Of a DNA stretch of 64,000 nt, positions 7,459 through 35,226 are shown in pieces. The position numbers were made by a program, and so were the translations under genes. Source of the stretch: Desulfobulbus sp. Lineage in GTDB: Bacteria; Desulfobacterota; Desulfobulbia; Desulfobulbales; Desulfobulbaceae. The stretch spans positions 124,001 through 188,000 of the forward strand of contig JAITGO010000010.1 in the NCBI GenBank assembly GCA_031280615.1. The letters are read 5' to 3'. How positions within the stretch are numbered: the stretch's first letter is position 1; each line of letters begins with the position of its first letter. The notes beneath the pieces were generated by a model. That model did no database searches. It worked only from the letters and a program-made list of their open reading frames with translations, and was not told the origin of the DNA.

Positions 7459-7490
7459 TTGACGAGAACCCTCGCATGGGTTCTAGAGAG
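7459..7490 (+). promoter_or_regulatory. Possible promoter with a 7-bp inverted repeat upstream of the first cobalamin riboswitch
   Basis: TTGACG at 7459-7464 could be a -35 element for the riboswitch leader. Directly behind it, AGAACCC and GGGTTCT (7465-7484) form a perfect inverted repeat with a 6-base centre, which could be an operator between -35 and -10. A clear -10 is not evident (TCTAGA is the best candidate), so the promoter call is weak. The stretch 7281-7440 holds nothing I recognise. Confidence 0.35.
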
Positions 7491-7495
7491 ACCGT

Positions 7496-7649
7496 TTAGG
7501 TGTTCATTCGTGAACTGAAAAGGGAACTCCGTGTAAGTCGGAGACGGGCCCGCCGCTGTAACCGGGGACCAACGCTGCACCGTGTCACTGACCGCCAGGT
7601 CGGGAAGACGCAGCAAGTAGGATGAGCCGGGAGTCAGAAGACCTGCCTG
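7496..7649 (+). ncRNA. Cobalamin riboswitch, copy 1
   Basis: It contains the conserved core elements of the AdoCbl/B12 riboswitch class: GGGAA followed by a GTGTAAGTC segment, GACGGGCCCGCCGCTGTAACC, and the B12 box region AGACGCAGCAAGTAGGATGAGCC, then GTCAGAAGACCTGCC closing on the AGGT near the 5' end. A strong terminator lies 69 bases downstream (7718-7755), so this copy probably acts by transcription termination when cobalamin is bound. It shares an identical 48-base core (7543-7590) with copy 2 (7965-8012). Confidence 0.94.
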
Positions 7650-7717
7650 AACGCGCGAAAGACGAGTGCGAGGACGGCACGCTTTCGACATTTTTGTCTG
7701 TGGATAAAACAAGGGCT

Positions 7718-7755: not shown

Positions 7756-7916
7756 GGAAAGGAAAGGGAGAGAAGGAGAGTGGCGCCCCTTTCCCCTGCC
7801 GGCCACGTGCCGGCCGGACAACGCTGCCCGCCGTACCGTCGATCGGCCCGACGATGCGGCGCTTGAAATGCAATCGGCCGGAGCCCGGGCCTCCGTGTCC
7901 GGAGACGACAACGCCT

Positions 7917-8073
7917 ATCAGGTGTTCGGCAACGAGCCGAGCAGGGAACCCCGTGCAAGTCGGGGACGGGCCCGCCGCTGTAACCGGGGACCAACGCTGC
8001 ACCGTGTCACTGGCCTCCAGGCCGGGAAGACGCAGCAAGTAGGATGAGCCGGAAGTCAGAATACCTGCCTGAT
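7917..8073 (+). ncRNA. Cobalamin riboswitch, copy 2
   Basis: It has the same core as copy 1, with the P1 ends ATCAGG (7917-7922) and CCTGAT (8068-8073) pairing perfectly. Between its end and the btuB start at 8218 I see no hairpin with a T-run, so this copy more likely controls translation, perhaps by masking the CCTGGAGG ribosome binding site at 8206-8213. The control mode is inference. The 7756-7916 spacer holds no convincing gene. Confidence 0.94.
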
Positions 8074-8217
8074 ACGCACGTACATGCCACGCCTTCCCGC
8101 GGATCTCGGGCCGGCTGGCGGATCTCGCGGAGAAACAGGGAATCTCCAGATCGATTATGTTTCGGTCCGGGGAGTTGCACGCCTCGGACGCACAATTCCA
8201 ATCACCTGGAGGTTGCA

Positions 8218-25082: not shown

Positions 25083-25147
25083 CCGGGCAACCGCTCGCGG
25101 CCGGGACGCCCGACGGTGCCGGCCGCGGCAAGTGGAACGAGGTGGCT

Positions 25148-25963
25148 ATGGTTGAGTGGATACAGCAGTTCAATCCGATTATGCAGGCCTTGCTGGCGAC
25201 CCTGTTCACCTGGGGGGTGACCGCTGCCGGCGCGGCGCTGGTGTTCCTGCAACGGGAGATCAGCCCGAAGCTGCTCGACGGCATGCTCGGGTTTGCCGCC
25301 GGGGTGATGATCGCCGCCAGCTTCTGGTCGCTGCTGGCACCGGGAATCGAGATGGCCGAGCAACTGGGCCATGTCCCTTGGCTGACCGCTACCATCGGCT
25401 TCATGGGCGGCGGCATCTTCATGCGGCTCACCGACAGGTTCCTGCCCCACCTCCATCCCGGCCTGGCCCTGGAGGAGAGCGAGGGCATCAAGACCTCGTG
25501 GCAGCGCTCCACCCTGCTGGTGCTGGCCATTACCCTCCACAACATTCCCGAGGGACTGGCGGTGGGCGTGGCCTTCGGCGCGGTGGCGGCGGATCTGCCC
25601 TCGGCCTCCCTCGGCGGGGCCATTGCCCTGGCCATCGGCATCGGCCTGCAGAACTTTCCCGAGGGCGCGGCGGTATCTCTGCCCCTGCGGCGCGAGGGCC
25701 TAAGCCGCGGACGGTCGTTTTTCCTGGGCCAGGCCTCCGGGGTGGTCGAGCCGATCGCCGGGGTGTTCGGCGCCTGCTTTGTCCTCAAGATGCAGCATGT
25801 GCTGCCTTATGCGCTGTGCTTCGCCGCCGGGGCCATGATTTTCGTGGTGGTCGAGGAATTGATCCCCGAATCCCAGCGCAAGCAGGCCAACATCGACTTC
25901 GTGACCATGGCCACCCTGGCCGGATTCGCCACCATGATGATCCTCGACGTCGCCCTGGGGTGA
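25148..25963 (+). CDS. ZIP family divalent metal transporter
   Basis: 271 residues with about eight membrane segments. The metal-binding signatures of ZIP carriers are present: [14 protein letters not shown] on TM4 and [13 protein letters not shown] on TM5, where His, Asn, Pro, Glu line the path. It resembles the GufA/ZupT group, which moves zinc and other divalent ions into the cytoplasm. ATG 25148 has GAGGTGG before it. The response regulator gene begins 87 bases later on the same strand, so the two-component system might respond to metal instead of oxidant. Confidence 0.9.
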
Positions 25964-26050
25964 GGGCGGATCGCGGCTGACGCATCCTGTTCGCGCCGTC
26001 GTGAACGGATGCGCGGTCCACATTTTGCCAACCATTCAGGTCCTGTTGCC

Positions 26051-26767
26051 ATGGCGTCCGCAGCATCCAAGGGATCCATCCTGATCGTCGAAGACGACGG
26101 CCATACCGCCAACCTGGTAAAAACCTACCTGGAGCGGGAAGGCTTCGCCACCCTGGCCGCAGCCGATGGCCGCAGCGCCCTCGACATCGCCGGCCGGCAG
26201 CCGCTGTGCTGCATCATCTTGGACATCATGCTGCCCAAGCTCGACGGCTGGGAGGTTTGCCGCCGCATCCGGCGGACATCGAACGTGCCCATCGTCATGC
26301 TGAGCGCCAGGGAAGAGGAAATCGACCGGGTGATGGGGCTGTCGATCGGGGCCGACGATTACGTGGTCAAGCCGTTCAGCCCCCGCGAGCTGGTGGAGCG
26401 AGTCAAGGCCATCCTCCGCCGCACCCACCCTCCTCCGCCTCTCGAAGAAGAATGGCGCCACGGCGCGTTGGTGCTCAACGACGCCAAGCACAAGGTCACC
26501 CTGGCCGGTGTCCCGGTGGAACTGACCGGCAGCGAATATAAACTGCTCCGCACCCTGATGCGTTCGCCGGGCCGGGTCTTCTCACGGGAGGAACTCCTGG
26601 CCGAGTTCTACGCATACGGCGAGGCCGTGATCGACCGGGTGATCGACGTCCACATCGGCAAGCTGCGACAGAAAATCGAACCCAATCCGGCCCGGCCGAC
26701 GTACATCCTCACCGTGCGCGGCTTCGGCTATCGGTTGGCCGAGGCGGCCGAGGAGCCGCGGCCGTGA
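26051..26767 (+). CDS. OmpR-family response regulator
   Basis: 238 residues. The receiver domain (about 8-120) has the acidic pair in VEDDG, the phospho-accepting Asp58 in ILDIMLPKLDGWEV, a Ser in MLSAREEE and Lys in VVKPFSPREL. The C-terminal winged-helix domain (about 140-232) ends with RPTYILTVRGFGYRL, the OmpR/PhoB signature. It binds direct repeats as a dimer. Its stop overlaps the kinase start (GTGA). The four 11-bp repeats at 27869-27912, just past the kinase gene, are a natural candidate site. An ATG at 26009 is also in frame. Confidence 0.93.
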   Translation: MASAASKGSILIVEDDGHTANLVKTYLEREGFATLAAADGRSALDIAGRQPLCCIILDIMLPKLDGWEVCRRIRRTSNVPIVMLSAREEEIDRVMGLSIGADDYVVKPFSPRELVERVKAILRRTHPPPPLEEEWRHGALVLNDAKHKVTLAGVPVELTGSEYKLLRTLMRSPGRVFSREELLAEFYAYGEAVIDRVIDVHIGKLRQKIEPNPARPTYILTVRGFGYRLAEAAEEPRP

Positions 26768-27831
26768 CGCACCGCCTGCTGTGGAAACTGCTGCTGATCA
26801 ACATCGTGCCGGTGATTCTGGTGATCATCGGCGTGATCTGGTTGGCGATCGATCACCTGGCGGCCTCCTATTTCATGGAGTTGATGGACAACTACGCCAT
26901 CTCCCCCACCGAGCTCCACGCGATGTTCCTCACCTCGATCCACCATTATCTGTTGTGGGCGAGCCTGGTGGCCCTGGTGGTGGCCACCCTGTTGAGCTTT
27001 CTCCTCACCAGGCGGGTGTTGCGGCCCCTGTCGCAGATGGCGCGGATCACCGAGAGCATCGCCGCCGGCGACTTCACCGGCCGGGTGCTGGTCCGCACCG
27101 ACGACGAGGTCGGCGACCTGGGGCGGGCCTTCAACCGGATGGCGGACAGCCTGGCCAGGGTGGAGCAGTTGCGCAAGAACATGGTGGCCGATGTGGCGCA
27201 CGAACTCCGCAGCCCCCTGACCAATCTGCGCGGCTACCTGGAGGCGCTCAACGACCGGGTGCTGCCGCCCTCCCGCGACACCCTGCGTATCCTGCAGGAG
27301 GAAAGCCTGCATCTGATGCGGCTGGTGGACGATCTCCAGCAGTTGGCCCGGGCCGACGCGGCCAAGATTCTGCTCCACCGCACCTCGGTCACCCCTGCCG
27401 ATGAGCTGGAACGGATGCTGCGGCTCTATCGGCAGCAGTTTGCCGCCAAGTCGATCGCGGTGGCCACCGATCTGAAATCCACCGTCCAACTCATGGCCGA
27501 CCGCGACAAGCTGCTCCAAGCCCTGCGCAATCTTTTCGAGAATTGCTGGAAATACACGCCGACGGACGGTTGGGTCCGGCTGGAGGTCGTCGATGACGGC
27601 CAAGAGGTGCGGGTGGCGTTCCACAACTCCGGGCCCGGCATTGCGGCCGAGGATCTCCCCTTCATCTTTGAGCGGTTTTTTCGCGCCGACCGTTCCCGTT
27701 CGCGCAAGGACGGCGGCGCCGGCATCGGGCTGTCGATCGTCAAGGAATTGATCGAGGCCCAGGGCGGCCGGGTCGGTGCCGAAAGCGATCGGGAAACCAC
27801 CACGGTCTGGTTTGCCCTGCCTCTGTCTTGA
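26764..27831 (+). CDS. Membrane sensor histidine kinase
   Basis: 355 residues, GTG start overlapping the regulator stop. Two membrane segments (about 7-28 and 63-83) enclose a short periplasmic loop of some 35 residues containing several Met (FMELMDNY, HAMFL). Then HAMP (about 84-135), HisKA with His146 in VADVAHELRSPLTNLRGY, and HATPase with NLFENCWKYTP, NSGPGIAAEDLPFIFERFFR and GAGIGLSIVKELIEA. The HisKA and HATPase motifs needed for autophosphorylation are present. The Met in the small sensor loop would suit oxidation sensing, but that is inference. Confidence 0.93.
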   Translation: MTHRLLWKLLLINIVPVILVIIGVIWLAIDHLAASYFMELMDNYAISPTELHAMFLTSIHHYLLWASLVALVVATLLSFLLTRRVLRPLSQMARITESIAAGDFTGRVLVRTDDEVGDLGRAFNRMADSLARVEQLRKNMVADVAHELRSPLTNLRGYLEALNDRVLPPSRDTLRILQEESLHLMRLVDDLQQLARADAAKILLHRTSVTPADELERMLRLYRQQFAAKSIAVATDLKSTVQLMADRDKLLQALRNLFENCWKYTPTDGWVRLEVVDDGQEVRVAFHNSGPGIAAEDLPFIFERFFRADRSRSRKDGGAGIGLSIVKELIEAQGGRVGAESDRETTTVWFALPLS

Positions 27832-27868
27832 CGTTATCGCCTGTCCAGGTGTTCCACCTGGGCATCAT

Positions 27869-27912
27869 TCTTTAAGACTTCTTTAACTCGTCTTTATCCG
27901 ATCTTTACATTG
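27869..27912 (+). promoter_or_regulatory. Four exact 11-bp direct repeats (TCTTTA-N5), likely response-regulator operator
   Basis: TCTTTA occurs at 27869, 27880, 27891 and 27902, each exactly 11 bases apart, with a degenerate fifth unit (GCTTTC) at 27912. OmpR/PhoB-type regulators bind 11-bp direct repeats, for example the PhoP box (G/T)GTTTA-N5-(G/T)GTTTA. The array ends about 57 bases before the Met-rich protein start and 37 bases after the kinase stop. A -10-like TTATGG lies at about 27924. The binding partner is inferred from adjacency. Confidence 0.72.
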
Positions 27913-27969
27913 CTTTCCTAGAGTTATGGCAACCAATCCCCCTTAACATAAACGATAGAGGAGGACGCC

Positions 27970-28323
27970 ATGAAAAACTATTTGATCGCCTTGGGCAGCA
28001 TGGTGCTGCTGTGGAGCCTGACGGGCGCGCCCGCCATGGCTGTGGAAGAGGCACCGATGACATCGGGTCCGGAACGGACGATGCCGATGGCAACCATGCC
28101 GGACAAGCCGGCGGGTACCATGGCCAAACCGGAGATGGGCGGCGATCCGCCCCGATCCATGATGCCGTCGTCGGGTCCCGAGGAAAAGACCCCGGTGGTG
28201 CCGGCAACGGAGACCGGCATGTCCGGAGGCATGAGCGGAAAGGACTCGATGAAGCCGCCTGAGTCCACGATGGAGAAAGGCCGAACCGGCGACGCCATGG
28301 AGCCGATGGCCCCGAAGCGCTAG
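27970..28323 (+). CDS. Secreted methionine-rich protein
   Basis: 117 residues. A signal peptide of 24 residues ends ...TGAPAMA. The mature part is 93 residues of low complexity, rich in Met (14), Pro, Gly, Glu and Lys, with no Cys and repeated M-P/M-S/M-K steps such as TMPMATMP and GMSGGMSGKDSM. It has no recognised domain. Met-rich exported peptides can act as sacrificial targets for oxidants or as copper carriers. The operator-like repeats upstream and msrAB downstream favour the oxidant role. GGAGGAC precedes ATG 27970. Confidence 0.75.
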   Translation: MKNYLIALGSMVLLWSLTGAPAMAVEEAPMTSGPERTMPMATMPDKPAGTMAKPEMGGDPPRSMMPSSGPEEKTPVVPATETGMSGGMSGKDSMKPPESTMEKGRTGDAMEPMAPKR

Positions 28324-28586
28324 AATTGCGCATCCCCCGGCCGGCTGCCGAAGGCGGGACCGCCCCCGCCGCGAGCGTGAAACGGTGGCCGGCCCTCATC
28401 TCGCATCCGCGTTCGACTCGCTCGACCATATGCAAAAAGAAACAGTGAACCGAGGTGGGCCGAACAACCTTCGACCTTGTTTGGGGCGGACCTTGGACAG
28501 CAAATCTGACTCTTCTTTCCCTTCTTTGCCGAAAGGAAGCCTGGCGTGCGCACAGCAGGGGCAGGACAACCATCTGGAGAACAACG

Positions 28587-29669
28587 ATGAAATTCGTGGC
28601 CTTTTTTTCCCTGGCGAGCGTGTTGGTGCTCTTGACCGTGGTACTCCCGACGTGGCGAGGTGGCAACGGTGTTGCCGGAGAATCCGGCATGACGCCGACA
28701 GCCCCGGATCAGCGAAACACGGAACGGGCTCTGTTTGCCGGGGGGTGTTTCTGGAGCATGGAAAAGTCGTTCGAACAGCTCGATGGCGTTCTATCGGTGG
28801 AATCCGGCTACGCCGGCGGCACCACGGCCAATCCCACCTATGAAAATTATGCGAACGGCGGTCACATTGAAGTCGTGCAGGTGGTCTACGATCCCCAGGT
28901 GGCGAACTACGGGCAACTCCTGGCAACCTATTGGCGCCAGGTCGATCCCACCGACAACGGCGGACAGTTCGTTGACCGTGGCCATGCCTACACCACCGCC
29001 ATCTTCACTTACAACCAGCAGCAGCGTGAGGCGGCGGAGTCATCGAAAAGGGAGCTGGCGGCCAGCGGCATTTTCAAAAATCCCATCGTGACCCCGATCC
29101 TCCCGGCCCCGGTTTTCTACCGCGCCGAGGAATATCACCAGGATTATTACAAGCACAATCCAATGCGCTATACCCAGTACCGCTCCCACTCCGGACGCGA
29201 CAGTTTTTTTGCAACGACATGGAAAAACGTCAAAACGGATGTTGCCGCACCCGCCGACCTGAAGAGCCGGCTCACCCCGCTCCAGTACAAGGTTACCCAG
29301 GAAAACGGTACCGAGCCGCCTTTCAACAACGTCTACTGGGACAACAAGCGGCCGGGCATCTACGTTGACATCGTCTCCGGAGAACCGCTGTTCGGCTCCA
29401 CCGACAAGTTCGATTCGCACACCGGCTGGCCGAGTTTTACCAGGCCGCTGGTCCCGGGAAACATCGTGGAGCATGAAGACCGAAGCCTGTTTGCGGTACG
29501 GACCGAAGTGCGAAGTAAGGGCGGCAATTCCCATCTCGGCCATGTGTTCGACGACGGGCCGCCGCCCACCGGCCTCCGCTACTGTATCAACTCGGCCGCG
29601 CTCCGCTTCGTTCCCGCCGAAGACCTGGAAAAAGAAGGATTGGGCGAATTTGTTCATCTGCTTCAATGA
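28587..29669 (+). CDS. msrAB: Exported MsrA-MsrB fusion, peptide methionine sulfoxide reductase
   Basis: 360 residues. An N-terminal signal or anchor ([20 protein letters not shown]) places it outside the cytoplasm. MsrA domain (about 45-200) with catalytic Cys54 in GGCFWSME reduces the S-sulfoxide; MsrB domain (about 225-350) with catalytic Cys333 in [11 protein letters not shown] reduces the R-sulfoxide. The MsrB part lacks the zinc CxxC pairs found in E. coli MsrB. The layout is that of PilB/MsrAB without the thioredoxin-like domain, so an external reductant is needed. TCTGGAGAA precedes ATG 28587. The 263 bases before it show nothing notable. Confidence 0.94.
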
Positions 29670-29710
29670 GTGCAATTTGCATTCAAGAACGACACGAGCT
29701 TGTGGCAACG

Positions 29711-29880
29711 GACAAGAGCGAAGAGCGTTCGATTTTCCAGTTTGCAGACAGATCGCTCGAAGAACGCATGGCTACGGAGGCCACGTAGAGTCCATTTTTT
29801 TGCCATGACGGCTGTTCACAGTTCTCTGACGCGGCGGGTCTGCTGTGATGATTCGTGGACGCTGAACAGGAGGAAAGTCC
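29711..29880 (+). pseudogene. Decayed partial copy of the cytochrome b gene (3' end)
   Basis: This stretch aligns with the 3' end of the intact cytochrome b gene at 33076-33250. One frame reads AKSVRFSSLQ...RRVHFFAM, against WKSVQFPLLR...RRVHFFAM in the intact protein; a second frame ends AVMIRGR-stop against LLMIRGR-stop. After the stop both copies continue GTGGACG(C/T)TGAACA with a purine-rich ribosome binding site. Frameshifts and an internal deletion make it non-functional. The rest of 29670-30128 holds only the promoter-like sequence at 29962. Confidence 0.7.
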
Positions 29881-29961
29881 CACCCCCAGGTTTGGGAGAG
29901 CGCGTCTCCGCAGACGGCACGATTGTTCTATTTATGGAACGCATGGTTGCCGCTCCGTGTA

Positions 29962-29990
29962 TTGATCGCCAAATACCATCACAGGATAAT
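29962..29990 (+). promoter_or_regulatory. Sigma-70 type promoter for the chemoreceptor gene
   Basis: TTGATC (29962-29967) and GATAAT (29985-29990) are 17 bases apart. The leader to ATG 30129 is about 130 bases and contains a direct repeat TTTAGCGC at 29998 and 30024. Confidence 0.5.
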
Positions 29991-30128
29991 AAAAAAGTTT
30001 AGCGCTTGTCATTATGTCCAAGCTTTAGCGCCTCTATCGGCGTGGCGGACATGGACCTGCGGGCGATTCGCCCGGCGTTTACATGATGATGGGATACAGC
30101 GAACCCAGTTTTCGGAGATGACATCAAT

Positions 30129-32495
30129 ATGCGGCATACATCGATTCGTTTTAAACTGTTGGGCGCGGGATGCCTTGTGCTCGTGCTGCTTCTCCTCATC
30201 AATGGGACCCTGGTGATCAGGGACGTATCCCATGCTCTGATTTCCCAAACCAAGCAAAGCGAGGAAGCCCTGGCCCGAGGGCTTGCCTCGCGCCTCGATA
30301 GTTTGCTGGCGGGTGAAATGAAAACCGCCGCGGGCATGGCTTCCGGTTACCTGATCAAGAAGACGACCAACGAGATCCATAAGGTTGGCCTGCAGGACGC
30401 AGAGGGCACTATCCGTGCCTTGCGGCAGGAAATGAAGGCTAAGTACAAGTTACTCGAACCAGGCTACCTTGGCATTTTCGTCACGGACCAGGCCGGCAAT
30501 CTGTATACCGGCGAACTGGAAAACGGCGGCGAATATAAAGGCATCAATGTATCGGACCAGGATTATTTCAAAAAAGTCCGACAAAGTGGCAAGGCGGCTG
30601 CGAGCGACATGGTGCACTCCAAAGAGACCGGCGAACCGATGTGCGTTATCGCCGCTCCCATAATGCTTGCGGATGGATCTTTTGGCGGTGTTCTCGGGCT
30701 TTCGCTCAATGCAACACGGCTGAATCATCTGATCGCCGATTTCAAACTGGAGGAGACGGGCTACGCGTTTATGGTGAACGACCAGGGACTTGTCGTTGCC
30801 CATCCCCAGGAAGAACAGATCCTGAAAGTGAATCTTTCGTCCATAGCGAGCATGCGTGACCTGATGCCGCTCGTCACCTCGGGGCAAACCGGGATCAAGG
30901 ACTATCTCCATGAAGGCAAGCAGATGGTTGCGGGCTTCGCACCGGTGCCGAACACCACGTGGCGGGTCGTCATTACCGAAAGCGAGCAAGAATTCTTGGA
31001 AAAGGTCACGGTTCTGCGCAACAAGATCATCTTGGTCATGGTGATCTCGCTTTTTGCCGCCGCGCTGGCCATGTTCTATGGCTCCTCTTTTGTTGTCGCC
31101 CCCATCAAGAAAGCCGCCGAAGGCTTGCGGGACATCGCACAAGGGGAGGGAGACCTGACCAAGCGCCTGCAAATTATCCGAAGAGATGAGGTCGGAGAAC
31201 TGGCCCATTGGTTTAACGCCTTTCTCGATCGAATGGAGTTCATTATCGGCCAAATCAATTCCCGGTCCCATGGACTGCAACTCTCAGCCGCCGATCTCGA
31301 CACCTTTGTCAGGCAAATGATGGACCGTGCGACTGCGTCCTCGAATCGATCGGAGGGAGTGGTTGAAGGTGCCGAACTCATGAACAGTACCATGAACGTC
31401 GTTGCCGTCTCCAGCGACCAGGCATCGACGAGCGTCAACGTGGTGACGATGGCCATGGAGGAGATGGCCGCCACTGCCAAGGAGATTGCTTCGAATTCGG
31501 AGAACGCGCGCATCATCATCGAAAAAGCGTCTTCCGAGGCGGGAGACGCCACCGAGCACATCGACCGATTGGGCAACGTGGTCAGCGAAATCGGCAAAGT
31601 CACCGAAGTGATCACCGAGATTTCCGAACAAACCAATTTGTTGGCGCTCAACGCCACCATCGAGGCGGCCCGGGCCGGGGACGCCGGCAAGGGGTTTGCG
31701 GTCGTGGCCAACGAGATCAAGGAACTTGCCAAGCAAACGGCTCTGGCAACTGGGGAAATCAAGAATAAAATCGAATTGATCCAAAGTACGACCAACGACA
31801 CGGTCAACGAAATCGGCCGGATTGTGGCGGTCATCAAGGAAGTGAATGGAATTGTCGGCGTGATTGCGGCCTCGGTGGAGGGGCAATCGCAAAAAAGTGC
31901 CGAAATCACCATGAACCTGCACCAGGCATCTCTGGGCATCCAGGATGCGACCCAAAATGTTGTGGAAGCCACGACCACTGCGGGCAACATTTCCTTCGAT
32001 ATCACCGAGGTGAACCAGAATGCCCGGCACATGAATGTCCTGGCCTCGGAAGTTAACACCCAGTTGCGCGATGTTATTGATTTTTCGTCGAACCTGAAGG
32101 AGGCTGTCGCCCAGTTCAAAACCTCGCCCCCTGGTTTCGATCTTGCAAGCGTCCGCGCCGCCCACATGCAGTGGCGATCCCGTTTGGTGGAGATTGTTTA
32201 CGGACACCAGGCCCCAAGCATGAAGGACGTGGCCTCCGATCGCGACTGCGCATTCGGCAAGTGGCTGTTTGGGTCGGAAGGAGAGGCGTTGCGCGGAAGC
32301 GCTCATTATGCGGAGGTCGTGGCCCAGCATAAAAAGATTCACGACTATGGCCTGTTGGTTATACAGGCTATGCAGGGAGATGACCGGGAGCAGGCTCTTG
32401 CCTTGATGCAGGAATTCGAAAGAATCAGGAATGCATTCCTCAAGGCCTTGGACGCATTCTGGCTCGACTCGCTCAACACGGCCGGGAGCGCCTGA
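30129..32495 (+). CDS. Methyl-accepting chemotaxis protein with periplasmic sensor and C-terminal CZB domain
   Basis: 788 residues. TM1 (about 12-32), a dCache-like periplasmic domain (about 33-295, with [19 protein letters not shown] and GVLGLSLN), TM2 (about 297-320), HAMP, then the signalling domain with the hairpin tip [20 protein letters not shown]. The last 110 residues form a CZB zinc-binding domain: HMQW near 679, CAFGKW near 706 and HKKIH near 734, matching Hx(2)W...CxFGxW...HxxxH. CZB domains of H. pylori TlpD and E. coli DgcZ sense hypochlorite through the zinc-bound Cys. Its site between msrAB and the Mo-oxidoreductase fits that stimulus. ATG 30129. Confidence 0.92.
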
Positions 32496-32617
32496 AAAAA
32501 ACCATCCAGCACGATCTCCGGTCGGGCAAGCAGTGATGGGCTCAGAGTGCACTTCGTGTGGAATGAGAGGGGGATTTCCTCTTGAAAGGCCGGGAGATCT
32601 AACATGAAGAGGAAAAG

Positions 32618-33244
32618 TTGCTCAGCCTAAAGAAAAAAGCCTTTGTCCGCAAGCATTCCTCGGCGATCGTCAATCCGCTTTGGCTACGTCTCATGCACTG
32701 GCTCAATGCGTTGGCAGTCATTTTGCTGGTTTTGAGCGGTTGGCGTATCTATGATGCCTCCCCCTTTCTCGGTTTCGTCATTCCCAAAGAGCTCACCTTG
32801 GGCGGATGGCTGGCCGGTGCCCTGCAATGGCATTTTGCCGCGATGTGGCTGCTGGCAATCAACGGCATCGCCTATCTCCTTTGCAACCTCCTGACAGGAC
32901 GTCTGTTTAAGAAATTTTTTCCGCTATCACCCCGCGAAGTCCTCAAAGATATCGCCGCTGCCCTGAGGGGGAAATTTATTTCCGACGACCTCACCCGTTA
33001 TACGGCAATGCAGCGCACTGCCTATCTGTTCATTATTGCCAGTCTGGTGATTCTGGTGCTCTCGGGTCTCGTCCTCTGGAAGTCCGTTCAATTTCCGCTA
33101 CTCCGTGAGATGCTCGGCGGATACGAAGGCGCTCGCCGGGTCCATTTCTTTGCCATGGCTGCGGTGGTCGTTTTTTTTCCGATTCATCTGCTCATGGTTG
33201 CGTTGTCGCCGCGCGCCTTGCTGCTGATGATCCGTGGACGTTGA
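32618..33244 (+). CDS. Membrane cytochrome b (b561/NiFe-hydrogenase b-type family)
   Basis: 208 residues, about four membrane helices with candidate heme His in RLMHWLNA, LQWHFAAMW, RRVHFFAM and FPIHLLMV. It belongs to the cytochrome b561 bacterial type, not the FRD-like MsrQ/YedZ family. Such proteins pass quinol electrons to a periplasmic partner; the next gene, a molybdopterin oxidoreductase 19 bases on, is the obvious one. The start is TTG 32618 with AGAGGAAAAG ahead; no ATG suits. A decayed copy of its 3' end lies at 29711-29880. Confidence 0.82.
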   Translation: MLSLKKKAFVRKHSSAIVNPLWLRLMHWLNALAVILLVLSGWRIYDASPFLGFVIPKELTLGGWLAGALQWHFAAMWLLAINGIAYLLCNLLTGRLFKKFFPLSPREVLKDIAAALRGKFISDDLTRYTAMQRTAYLFIIASLVILVLSGLVLWKSVQFPLLREMLGGYEGARRVHFFAMAAVVVFFPIHLLMVALSPRALLLMIRGR

Positions 33245-33263
33245 ACAAGGAGTATTGCCCACC

Positions 33264-34055
33264 ATGAACGAACACTCGAAAAAACCGTTACTCTCCAGTG
33301 CGAACGAAACGTTGCTGCGGGATATCCGAAAGGATATGGGCCGTTTCATTCACCAGCCACAACGGCGCATTTTTTTGCAACATTCGTTGACTCTTGGTGG
33401 ACTGGCTTTGCTCAGCGGTTGCACTGTGGTTGATGAAAACAGCATTGAAAACGCCTTGATGGCCATTTCGCGCTTCAACGATAAGGTCCAGGCGCTGTTG
33501 TTCGATCCAAATCGTTTGGCCCCGACATACCCGCAATCGATGATCACCCAGCCGTTTCCGTTCAATGCATTTTACGGAAAAAATAATATTCCCGAAATCG
33601 AGGAGGAAGACTTTCGATTGGAAGTAACCGGTATGGTTGCCGACAAACGATCCTGGACTCTCAAGGAGTTGCGTGCCTTGCCGCAAGTCGACCAAATTAC
33701 CCGGTTGATCTGTGTCGAGGGCTGGAGCGCGATCGGTCGCTGGGGCGGTATCCAGTTTTCCACCTTTTTACGTCGGATTGGTGCCGACCTGACGGCAAAA
33801 TATGTGGGGTTCAAGTGCGCCGATGAGTACTACACCAGCATTGATATGCCGACCGCGCTCCATCCGCAAACAATACTCACGCTTACGTACAACGGAGAGA
33901 TGCTACCGCCCCAGTATGGCTTTCCTCTGAAATTGCGGATGCCCACCAAGCTGGGATACAAAAATCCCAAGCACATCCATGCCATGTTCGTTACCAACGT
34001 CAACCCGGGGGGATACTGGGAAGATCAAGGCTATAATTGGTTTGGAGGCAGTTGA
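33264..34055 (+). CDS. Molybdopterin-dependent oxidoreductase, sulfite-oxidase/MsrP fold, Tat lipoprotein
   Basis: 263 residues. The N terminus carries twin Arg and a lipobox in QRRIFLQHSLTLGG and LLSGC, suggesting Tat export and lipid anchoring. The sulfite-oxidase-type Mo domain follows, with LICVEGWSAIGRWGG (Cys150 as the Mo ligand) and a C-terminal PLKLRMPTKLGYKNPKHIHAM. MsrP (YedY) of this fold repairs periplasmic methionine sulfoxide; this member is related, but its substrate is not proven. ATG 33264 follows AAGGAG. It is paired with the cytochrome b and followed by the MXKDX protein. Confidence 0.85.
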   Translation: MNEHSKKPLLSSANETLLRDIRKDMGRFIHQPQRRIFLQHSLTLGGLALLSGCTVVDENSIENALMAISRFNDKVQALLFDPNRLAPTYPQSMITQPFPFNAFYGKNNIPEIEEEDFRLEVTGMVADKRSWTLKELRALPQVDQITRLICVEGWSAIGRWGGIQFSTFLRRIGADLTAKYVGFKCADEYYTSIDMPTALHPQTILTLTYNGEMLPPQYGFPLKLRMPTKLGYKNPKHIHAMFVTNVNPGGYWEDQGYNWFGGS

Positions 34056-34126
34056 GCGCAGGGGTGCGACTGCTCCGATAAGGCCGGCAAGAACGCCGGG
34101 GAATTTTATTTGCATAGGAGAACAGC

Positions 34127-34387
34127 ATGAAAACAAGAACGATTGCAAGTGTCCTTTTCTCAATGTCTCTTTTGGTCGGCGGTGCATGCTTTGCTGCCGA
34201 TACGATGATGAAGGATGACATGGCGAAAGACGGTATGATGAAGCACGACACCATGGACAAAAAAGACGAGATGCACAAAGGTGATATGGATAAAAAAGAC
34301 GGTATGATGCAGAAGGACGAGATGCACAAAAGCGGTATGGATAAAAAAGACGGCATGGACAAAAAAGACGATATGAGGAAAAAATAA
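34127..34387 (+). CDS. Secreted MXKDX-repeat methionine-rich protein
   Basis: 86 residues: a signal peptide (MKTRTIASVLFSMSLLVGGACFA) and a 63-residue mature chain made almost only of Met, Lys, Asp, plus some Gly, His and Glu. Repeats such as MDKKDG, MHKGD and MQKDE give 14 Met. It matches the pentapeptide MXKDX family. In Azospira the similar MrpX peptide is oxidised by hypochlorite and restored by a YedY-type reductase encoded beside it. The same neighbourhood is seen here, with the Mo-oxidoreductase 71 bases upstream. AGGAGAA precedes ATG 34127. Confidence 0.88.
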   Translation: MKTRTIASVLFSMSLLVGGACFAADTMMKDDMAKDGMMKHDTMDKKDEMHKGDMDKKDGMMQKDEMHKSGMDKKDGMDKKDDMRKK

Positions 34388-34409
34388 AGAATATGTAGTG
34401 GTTAGAGAT

Positions 34410-34451
34410 TGATCTGGCAGCTGCCAATTTTGATTGGTTGCTGTCAGATCA
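34410..34451. other. Imperfect stem-loop after the MXKDX gene
   Basis: A 19-base arm beginning TGATCTGGCAGC pairs with an arm ending GCTGTCAGATCA across a 4-base loop (15 of 19 positions). There is no T-run, so it may protect the mRNA end, or end transcription poorly. Confidence 0.4.
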
Positions 34452-34474
34452 GGGCTTGCCTTCAATAAGCGAAG

Positions 34475-34762
34475 ATGAAGAGTATTTTGGTTGAAATTCT
34501 AGAGTTTAGTATCGATGTCTTTCTTTTGCGACGCGCGCGCCGTGCCCGAGGCCTCAAGGAACATCAACTTGAACATGATGTCGCCGACATGGCGAACATG
34601 TATTTCCTGGGCATTGTGCTTTCGGTGACAGCCCTGGCGGCCATGTTCGTACTCTATTTTGGGCTGAATTGGCCATTCTGGCTCAGCTTCGGACTTCCGA
34701 CAGCCGCTGCAACAGGCTACAGTGGTTTGAGATTGAAAGGGTTGTACCGCAACCCCGATTAG
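34475..34762 (+). CDS. Small two-helix membrane protein, unknown function
   Basis: 95 residues. A basic N-terminal stretch (LLRRARRARGLKEH) is followed by two hydrophobic segments, about residues 44-63 (FLGIVLSVTALAAMFVLYF) and 66-83. I do not recognise a family. It follows the MXKDX gene on the same strand after 87 bases and may be the last gene of the methionine-oxidation island. The N-terminal helix with an ATG at 34475 is plausible, though the ribosome binding site is weak (AAGCGAAG). Confidence 0.6.
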   Translation: MKSILVEILEFSIDVFLLRRARRARGLKEHQLEHDVADMANMYFLGIVLSVTALAAMFVLYFGLNWPFWLSFGLPTAAATGYSGLRLKGLYRNPD

Positions 34763-35000: not shown

Positions 35001-35226
35001 ATGGCAGTAAAGCCGATTCTTGAACTTGTCGACCTTTCGCATTATTTTACTCATAATGACCAGGCGGGTCCGGTCCTGCGCCACCTCAGCCTGACCGTGG
35101 GCAGGGGTGAACTGATCTGCCTGATCGGCGGCAGCGGCAATGGGAAGTCGAGTGACTCTGGCCCTGGTCGTGGTGCTGATCTGCAGCCCGTGGCCATTGC
35201 CGGCCGATACCGGCGTTCGCATCTAA
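35001..35226 (+). pseudogene. Truncated ABC transporter ATPase fused to a foreign tail
   Basis: ATG 35001, with GGAGGAAGCC ahead, starts a typical ABC ATPase: ILELVDLSHYF, LRHLSLTVGRGELICLIGGS and GNGKS, the Walker A motif. Similarity stops right there at about 35150, where the frame turns into low-quality sequence. From GTG 35152 another frame reads VTLALVVVLICSPWPLPADT then VRI-stop, a hydrophobic export-like stretch with no known partner. A deletion has removed the rest of the ATPase. The 34763-35000 stretch before it shows no gene I recognise. Confidence 0.65.

What the first reader, a model, noticed from the sequence alone, without database searches (positions are those of the whole stretch)
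25964..34762. Candidate periplasmic methionine-oxidation (reactive chlorine) defence island in an anaerobe
Seen: in about 9 kb there is a two-component system, an exported Met-rich protein, an exported MsrA-MsrB fusion, a chemoreceptor with a CZB domain, a cytochrome b plus Tat-lipoprotein MsrP-fold molybdoenzyme, and a second exported Met-rich (MXKDX) protein. Known: in Azospira a MXKDX-type peptide (MrpX) and a YedY-type reductase detoxify hypochlorite, under SigF/NrsF control; in E. coli HprSR controls msrPQ; CZB zinc sites react with HOCl. Inference: this is one system combining sense, swim, scavenge and repair, with a different regulator and a different electron donor (cytochrome b561 type in place of MsrQ). 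I do not know of a described locus with this full combination.
Basis: partly seen in the sequence, partly recalled or inferred. Interest (0 to 1): 0.88.

Follow-up and report, generated by a model that had tools for sequence, protein, structure and literature searches.

The report
Two methionine-repair modules side by side
A stretch of an anaerobe's genome holds two separate sets of genes for repairing oxidised methionine outside the cytoplasm: a home-grown set beside its own sensor, conserved in many relatives, and an imported betaproteobacterial-type set of a kind already known to protect bacteria from bleach and peroxide.

Summary
The genes are all there, but they do not look like one evolved system. 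(1) Native module, 26009-29669: response regulator, histidine kinase, Met-rich exported protein, exported MsrA-MsrB fusion. A methionine sulfoxide reductase gene lies within about 2.5 kb downstream of the kinase in 29 of 39 evaluable loci (42 examined, this one included), and a CTTTA-N6-CTTTA repeat lies within 400 bp of its 3' end in 31 of 42. In this genome the array occurs at one place, before the Met-rich gene. (2) Imported cassette, 32618-34387: cytochrome b561, MsrP-like molybdoenzyme, MXKDX protein. Not found in sampled kin, low in G+C, nested in a mostly betaproteobacterial clade, and a stereotyped trio there (79 and 70 of 80 loci). It has neither the CTTTA array nor its relatives' SigF-type promoter. 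(3) The CZB chemoreceptor showed no conserved link to either. The 'different donor and regulator' are not new: E. coli OrhKR and betaproteobacterial loci pair a two-component system with a cytochrome b and molybdoenzyme. The native module resembles ModRS-MsrAB of Fusobacterium. Reactive chlorine as signal is untested.

The parts
26009..26767 (+). OmpR/PhoB-type response regulator (alternative start 26051), native module
   Evidence: PF00072 + PF00486; 63-77% identical orthologs beside the kinase in 6 relatives of the same family
26764..27831 (+). Sensor histidine kinase with a short periplasmic loop (limits by eye) holding Met38, Met41, Met54 and several His, native module
   Evidence: HAMP, HisKA, HATPase; 42 kinase loci examined, this one included; loop residues
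27842..27864 (+). Terminator-like stem after the kinase gene
   Evidence: 10-pair stem; a consensus match only (14 such sites found in the region, 10.4 expected)
27870..27907 (+). Four CTTTA boxes at 11-bp spacing, proposed binding array of the response regulator
   Evidence: 3 exact CTTTA-N6-CTTTA matches against 0 in 100 shuffles; the only place with such a triple, up to 1 mismatch, in the 3.4-Mb genome; conserved in relatives
27970..28323 (+). Exported Met-rich protein (117 aa, 15% Met), proposed sacrificial oxidant sink
   Evidence: Sequence; a Met-rich ORF within 700 bp after the kinase in 11 of 42 loci against 10 of 970 control pieces
28587..29669 (+). Exported (N-terminal hydrophobic anchor by eye) MsrA-MsrB fusion
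   Evidence: PF01625, PF01641; GCFW and RYC motifs shared with 7 aligned homologs
29770..29872 (+). Decayed remnant resembling the 3' end of a cytochrome b561 gene
   Evidence: Two collinear matches to 33119-33165 and 33204-33252; the two best matches of that tail elsewhere in the window, E 5e-5 and 0.002
30129..32495 (+). dCache-HAMP-MCP chemoreceptor with C-terminal CZB domain (H679, C707, H734, H738)
   Evidence: Pfam, residues; no conserved link to either module seen
32618..33244 (+). Cytochrome b561-type membrane subunit, imported cassette
   Evidence: PF01292; directly upstream of the molybdoenzyme in 79 of 80 loci, the miss being cut off by the locus end
33264..34055 (+). MsrP/YedY-like molybdopterin enzyme, predicted Tat lipoprotein, imported cassette
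   Evidence: PF00174; best solved relative 1xdq (YedY entry; name recalled), E 6e-14; tree
34127..34387 (+). MXKDX-type Met-rich exported protein (MrpX/BcrX type), imported cassette
   Evidence: TIGR02953 47.7 bits, cut-off 41
35001..35150 (+). ABC-transporter ATPase fragment broken off after the Walker A motif, at the right edge of the low-G+C stretch
   Evidence: PF00005 19.7 bits over profile 1-25 of 137, below the cut-off of 25

Best explanation
Two modules of the same function lie next to each other. The native one is a dedicated envelope methionine-redox circuit: a kinase with a short Met/His-containing periplasmic loop senses an oxidant (inferred); the regulator binds the CTTTA-N6 array at 27870-27907 (inferred from conservation) and switches on a Met-rich exported protein that soaks up oxidant and an exported MsrA-MsrB that reduces both methionine sulfoxide epimers (family knowledge). 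The second is a cytochrome b561 - MsrP-like molybdoenzyme - MXKDX trio taken from a betaproteobacterium or close kin; by analogy with the Azospira, Brucella and UPEC loci it passes quinol electrons to methionine sulfoxide in the MXKDX protein and other envelope proteins. It lacks its relatives' usual regulator here, so it is constitutive, read through from upstream, or under a promoter not found here. The CZB receptor is probably a bystander. Shown here: gene content, conserved order, the DNA site and its uniqueness, the transfer. Inferred: signal, binding, scavenging, electron flow.
For: Native module: kinase loci have an Msr gene within about 2.5 kb downstream in 7 of 7 same-family genomes including this one, 19 of 24 evaluable new places in the class (27 fetched, 3 cut off) and 3 of 8 outside it. 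CTTTA-N6-CTTTA lies within 400 bp 3' of the kinase in 31 of 42 loci, against 11 occurrences in 881,380 bp elsewhere; in G032, where MsrAB is displaced by about 2.4 kb, the array lies before MsrAB, not after the kinase. The triple array is at one place in the own genome, in 5 of 6 kinase-bearing and 0 of 4 relatives without a close kinase ortholog. Cassette: in 193 sampled genomes of the order the other 11 matching genomes reach at most 35% identity; in 395 of the phylum three others pass E 1e-40, at 36-42%; but 60-75% in the listed Beta/Gammaproteobacteria; G+C 0.42-0.54 against 0.63-0.71 in flanking genes; nests in a 22-row, mostly betaproteobacterial clade, SH-aLRT 95, quick tree.
Against: No expression, binding or phenotype data exist. 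57 of 73 family genomes match MsrAB but only 7 have this kinase, so MsrAB is usually run otherwise. 10 of 39 evaluable kinase loci have no Msr gene nearby; in two of them the paired box precedes a radical SAM/B12 gene. A Met-rich ORF follows in only 11 of 42 loci. My written prediction that three loop methionines mark Msr-linked kinases failed on new data (16 of 19 linked intact, 5 of 5 unlinked also intact). Only weak terminator-like matches lie between MsrAB and the receptor (29772-29788) and inside the cassette (34084-34099), so read-through from the native operon cannot be excluded. A 3-mismatch match to the triple array lies on the other strand at 34363-34389, at the end of the MXKDX gene (expected 0.08 per window); I take it for chance.
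Confidence: 0.72

Rival explanations
1. One reading: one reactive-chlorine defence island in which the two-component system, Met-rich proteins, MsrAB, chemoreceptor and cassette are one regulated system.
For: All genes are on one strand within 9 kb; an MXKDX - Msr system answers HOCl in Brucella (PMC8315932, abstract and passages); an MsrA homolog lies in the fetched locus of 29 of 80 cassettes; read-through is not excluded.
Against: Regulator array found only before the Met-rich gene; no array and no SigF motif before the cassette; CZB match in 0 of 80 cassette loci, with one query domain, and no MCP match in 6 native-module regions of 6.9-16 kb; different ancestry and composition.
Confidence: 0.12
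2. Copper or silver response: the kinase senses metal through its Met/His loop, the Met-rich protein binds it, and Msr repairs metal-driven methionine oxidation.
For: E. coli msrPQ is also induced by copper through CusSR and protects CusF (PMC9302797, abstract and passages); the Met-rich protein of G107 contains Met/His clusters; three Met and several His in the window kinase's first 70 residues.
Against: No copper efflux family among the Pfam matches of the ten genes from 25142 to 34762; the window's own Met-rich protein has no His; the neighbour at 25142 is a ZIP-family transporter.
Confidence: 0.15
3. The oxidant is peroxide or oxygen exposure, not chlorine, as reported for ModRS-MsrAB of the anaerobe Fusobacterium and OrhKR of E. 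coli. This is a variant of the best explanation that differs only in the signal.
For: Both closest described two-component versions respond to hydrogen peroxide (PMC9239216, PMC8550376; abstracts and passages).
Against: Orthology to ModRS was not tested and to OrhKR not shown; HprSR of E. coli is activated more efficiently by reactive chlorine (PMC13367049, passage).
Confidence: 0.45

Closest known systems
ModRS-MsrAB-Trx-CcdA locus, Fusobacterium nucleatum (PMC9239216; abstract and passages read)
   Same: Two-component system beside a fused MsrAB in an obligate anaerobe, used against oxidants
   Different: Regulators downstream of msrAB, trx and ccdA present, 'methionine-rich' nowhere in the text held, large ModR regulon; here regulators upstream, one array in the genome, no trx or ccdA among the ten scanned genes
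OrhKR - c3566-c3568, uropathogenic E. coli (PMC8550376; abstract and passages read)
   Same: Two-component system beside a cytochrome b, a putative periplasmic Msr and a small periplasmic protein
   Different: Proposed site there is TCACA-N15-TGTGA and the regulators adjoin the cytochrome gene; here the two-component system adjoins MsrAB and ends 4.8 kb before the cassette. I did not compare c3567 itself; an E. coli plasmid homolog (L101) is 57% identical to the window enzyme
SigF/NrsF - yedYZ - mrpX of perchlorate reducers (PMC4623255, passages read; Melnyk 2015 not held) and bcrS-abcS - bcrXQP of Brucella (PMC8315932, abstract and passages)
   Same: Met-rich MXKDX-type peptide plus MsrP-like enzyme plus membrane partner; two perchlorate islands add exported MsrA and MsrB
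   Different: ECF sigma/anti-sigma control; no ECF or NrsF match in the window and no GTAAC-N-CGAA motif before the cassette
HprSR-msrPQ, E. coli (PMC13367049 and PMC9302797, passages read)
   Same: Two-component control of periplasmic methionine repair; HprS reported to act upon its methionine oxidation
   Different: MsrP/MsrQ enzymes, box CATTACAAAATTGTAATG; regulator adjoins msrPQ, not MsrAB
CZB chemoreceptors such as H. pylori TlpD (PMC6715182; search listing and start of abstract only)
   Same: Chemoreceptor with a CZB domain
   Different: TlpD is cytosolic; here a membrane receptor with a dCache sensor; no conserved link to Msr genes seen

Membership tests
MsrPQ | Catalytic subunit reaches the MsrP equivalog cut-off | tested here: not met
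   NF003767 78.2 bits, cut-off 207
MsrPQ | Sulfite-oxidase/MsrP-type molybdopterin domain with Cys ligand (ligand recalled) | tested here: met
   PF00174 108 bits; invariant C150-V-E-G-W in 25 aligned rows; best solved relative 1xdq
MsrPQ | MsrQ-type membrane partner | tested here: not met
   Partner matches PF01292, prokaryotic cytochrome b561, as its only Pfam hit
Beta/gammaproteobacterial cytochrome b - molybdoenzyme - MXKDX cassette | Gene order cytochrome b561, molybdoenzyme, Met-rich MXKDX protein | tested here: met
   Same order in the window; cytochrome in 79 of 80, Met-rich ORF downstream in 70 of 80 loci
Beta/gammaproteobacterial cytochrome b - molybdoenzyme - MXKDX cassette | Molybdoenzyme inside the clade | tested here: met
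   22-row clade, SH-aLRT 95, quick tree with an unfinished careful search
SigF/NrsF-controlled MrpX system | ECF sigma and NrsF genes adjacent | tested here: not met
   No match of either query in the 64-kb window
SigF/NrsF-controlled MrpX system | GTAAC-N-CGAA-type promoter before the cassette | tested here: not met
   Pattern GTAA[CT]-N15-19-CG[AT][AT] in 18 of 22 ECF-linked loci, 0 of 16 two-component-linked, 1 of 41 others; absent in the window
OrhKR-type locus | Two-component system adjacent to the cytochrome b gene | tested here: not met
   Kinase ends at 27831, cytochrome gene starts at 32618; window regulator 43% identical to the Rahnella regulator beside such a trio
TIGR02953 pentapeptide MXKDX protein | Curated cut-off | tested here: met
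   47.7 bits, cut-off 41
ModRS-MsrAB type locus | Two-component system adjacent to a fused MsrAB | tested here: met
ModRS-MsrAB type locus | trx and ccdA in the locus | tested here: not met
   None among the ten genes scanned, 25142-34762
ModRS-MsrAB type locus | Regulator orthologous to ModRS | not tested
   ModRS sequences were not compared
CZB chemoreceptor | CZB domain with the His/Cys residues of the zinc site (site recalled) | tested here: met
   PF13682 40.6 bits; H679, C707, H734, H738
Reactive-chlorine response system | Induction by HOCl or chlorite and sensitivity of mutants | not testable with these tools
   Needs expression and mutant data

The most novel reading that the evidence does not exclude
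The native module is an undescribed two-component circuit dedicated to envelope methionine repair, scattered across this anaerobe's phylum and common in its class. Its signature is a regulator-kinase pair followed by a local array of 11-bp CTTTA repeats and a repair operon. The operon's enzyme slot takes different repair enzymes (MsrAB; separate MsrA and MsrB; a PF00174 molybdoenzyme plus MsrB in G556), its scavenger slot takes unrelated Met-rich proteins or a candidate selenocysteine MsrA-like protein, and this genome has stacked a second, quinol-fed repair route of betaproteobacterial origin beside it.
Probability: 0.55. Interest if true: 0.62.

Novelty: new variant of a known kind. Interest (0 to 1): 0.45.

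Why it matters
How anaerobes of this kind sense and repair envelope oxidation is, as far as I recall, little studied. The conserved array makes a specific regulator-target prediction that can be tested in many species by a gel shift or one reporter, and the locus looks like a natural case of two methionine repair routes with different electron supplies (inferred) side by side. It also corrects the idea that a cytochrome b561 donor for this enzyme is new.

Tried and rejected
Rejected: that the chemoreceptor belongs to either module. Its sensor part is at best 40% identical to relatives in the family sample; CZB domains are common there (52 of 73 genomes); comparing the tables by eye, only this genome and G078 have CZB and MsrAB on one contig within about 10 kb. 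The CZB search of the 80 cassette loci used one query domain and is a weak test.

Failed prediction: after 15 kinases I wrote down that three loop methionines mark Msr-linked kinases (10 of 10 intact against 0 of 5). The new set refuted it as a discriminator: 16 of 19 linked intact (G615, G128 and G098 broken), 5 of 5 unlinked intact; the 3 cut-off places, set aside, are intact too. Overall 26 of 29 against 5 of 10.

Uninformative: the TIGR02953 genome search missed even the window's own gene, so its blank rows prove nothing. The viral scan found no relative. Rfam at gathering threshold found nothing in the region, only two cobalamin riboswitches elsewhere in the window. The tree is a quick tree, its careful search unfinished; row f73_L203 in it came from a faulty translation in my script and must be ignored.
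Full report
Observation. The ten genes from 25142 to 34762 were translated and scanned. Only 5 of 366 window ORFs of 60 aa or more have 10% Met or more, and two of them are the ones named.

The cassette is imported. The molybdoenzyme is the only PF00174 match in the genome. In a sample of 193 genomes of the order 12 matched, this one included, and the other 11 reached at most 35% identity over parts of the protein. In 395 genomes of the phylum only three others passed E 1e-40, at 36-42%; a cytochrome b homolog (34-37%) lies beside the enzyme in their loci. In plasmid records, 51 of 629 had a best match of 60-80% identity. G+C falls from 0.63-0.71 in the flanking genes listed to 0.54, 0.51 and 0.42 in the trio, with MsrAB (0.59) and the receptor (0.56) in between. 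In a quick tree the window nests in a 22-row, mostly betaproteobacterial clade (SH-aLRT 95). A decayed cytochrome b 3' end at 29770-29872 and a broken ABC ATPase at 35001 lie at either side of the receptor-cassette stretch.

The cassette is a known kind. Across the 80 loci, all misses included, the cytochrome gene is directly upstream in 79 (the other is cut off at its end), a Met-rich ORF is downstream in 70 (78 have at least 300 bp there), an ECF sigma gene lies nearby in 22 (19 with NrsF), a response regulator in 17 (16 with a kinase), never both, and neither in 41; an MsrA homolog lies somewhere in the fetched locus in 29 and an MsrB in 12. Counted from that table, 11 of 80 combine response regulator, cytochrome, molybdoenzyme, Met-rich protein and MsrA. 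A SigF-type promoter motif, modelled on the Brucella sites in PMC8315932, stands before the cytochrome gene in 18 of 22 ECF-linked loci, 0 of 16 two-component-linked and 1 of 41 others; it is absent in the window, as are ECF and NrsF matches. In E. coli, 350 of 5426 genomes match the cassette DNA; the 8 listed rows match within the molybdoenzyme gene. One plasmid copy has a divergent regulator (annotated as a pseudogene) and kinase, then cytochrome b, molybdoenzyme and a small hypothetical protein. Published cases: SigF/NrsF-yedYZ-mrpX of perchlorate reducers, two islands with exported MsrA and MsrB (PMC4623255, passages); Brucella bcrXQP, HOCl-induced (PMC8315932, abstract and passages); UPEC OrhKR, peroxide (PMC8550376, abstract and passages). 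The original Azospira paper is not held, so I did not test which cytochrome type Azospira has.

The native module. The kinase's six same-family orthologs (62-78% identity; G203, G032, G142, G107, G193, G214) all have the regulator upstream and MsrAB downstream. Between kinase and MsrAB, the window, G142, G107 and G214 have dissimilar Met-rich exported proteins; G193, G214 and G032 have a small ORF with an in-frame TGA. A direct-repeat array, CTTTA at 11-bp spacing, precedes the operon in the window and in all six, degenerate in G193. In the window the pair occurs 3 times, overlapping, against 0 in 100 shuffles. A triple with up to one mismatch occurs at one place in the 3.4-Mb genome, control 0. 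Exact triples occur in 5 of 6 kinase-bearing relatives and in 0 of 4 congeners without a close kinase ortholog. The genome's second MsrAB (on C4) therefore has no such array.

Wider sampling. In a phylum sample 10 of 395 genomes have the kinase at E 1e-90 or better, 8 of them outside the family (51-61%): G376 and G345 have MsrAB downstream with boxes, G556 has a PF00174 molybdoenzyme and an MsrB with boxes before each, G275 and G490 have a paired box before a radical SAM/B12 gene, and G509, G471 and G488 have neither boxes nor Msr. In a class sample 33 of 257 genomes have the kinase at E 1e-80 or better; 27 further places in 26 genomes were fetched: 19 have Msr genes within about 2 kb, 5 evaluable ones do not (one has an MsrA match 6.3 kb away), and 3 are cut off. 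In all, 29 of 39 evaluable loci (42 examined) are Msr-linked. In the 42 loci, 31 have the paired box within 400 bp of the kinase, against 11 boxes in 881,380 bp elsewhere; a Met-rich ORF follows in 11 of 42 against 10 of 970 control pieces. Against this: 57 of 73 family genomes match MsrAB, mostly without this kinase. These counts are of related genomes and are not independent.

Mechanism. Shown: order, conservation, site, uniqueness, transfer. Inferred: the kinase senses an envelope oxidant; the regulator activates the Met-rich and MsrAB genes; the Met-rich protein is a sink that MsrAB regenerates. HprS of E. coli is reported to act upon methionine oxidation (PMC13367049, passage), which makes the three loop methionines (38, 41, 54) candidates, but my written test of them as markers of Msr linkage failed. 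The cassette would add a quinol-fed route, by analogy with the published systems. It has no recognisable regulator site here; because all genes run the same way and only weak terminator-like matches separate them, read-through cannot be excluded. A 3-mismatch match to the array on the other strand at 34363-34389 is taken for chance.

Literature. Closest to the native module is ModRS-MsrAB of Fusobacterium nucleatum (PMC9239216, abstract and passages). I found no description of this two-component system or its array in eight full-text searches, of which I saw the listed rows only; most subscription journals are not in that library.

Verdict. The anatomy is real; the single reactive-chlorine island is not supported. 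What is worth keeping is a conserved methionine-repair circuit with a precise candidate DNA site, and a transferred second route beside it.

Noticed in passing
L172:7419-7748 (+); L171:4332-4622 (-); L170 near its MsrAB gene: Small ORFs between kinase and MsrAB with an in-frame TGA (ATFAV[QR]-TGA-YDVG in L171 and L172), MsrA-N-like; with TGA read as selenocysteine these two match NF041383 (VPGUxxT seleno-protein type 2) at 37.4 and 35.6 bits, far below its cut-off of 275. Candidate selenoproteins; no SECIS or selenium-machinery check was made.
   Followed up: partly
29770-29872: Degenerate copy of the cytochrome b561 gene's 3' end between MsrAB and the chemoreceptor, suggesting an earlier or duplicated cassette.
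   Followed up: partly
35001-35150: ABC transporter ATPase fragment that stops after Walker A, right of the cassette.
   Followed up: partly
34475-34762: Small protein with hydrophobic stretches and low G+C after the MXKDX gene; no Pfam or NCBIfam match.
   Followed up: no
7481-7664 and 7903-8086: Two cobalamin riboswitches in tandem next to a TonB-dependent receptor ORF at 8044.
   Followed up: no
L202:6068-7427 (-): In G556 the same kind of kinase-regulator pair precedes a PF00174 molybdoenzyme and an MsrB, both with Tat-like starts (by eye) and with CTTTA boxes before each.
   Followed up: partly
L200:4458-5135 (-): In G345 a second CTTTA array lies about 400 bp upstream of a sigma-70 family (r2/r4 domains) gene that precedes the regulator.
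   Followed up: no
L197:5436-6989 (-) and L198:8615-10117 (+): In G275 and G490 the paired CTTTA box precedes a radical SAM/B12-binding gene instead of an Msr gene, and the kinase loop lacks the three methionines.
   Followed up: no
L250 (G615) and L255 (G128): Two Msr-linked kinases with boxes have lost all three loop methionines (loop GNFPD...), so if the loop is the sensor these two must sense differently.
   Followed up: no
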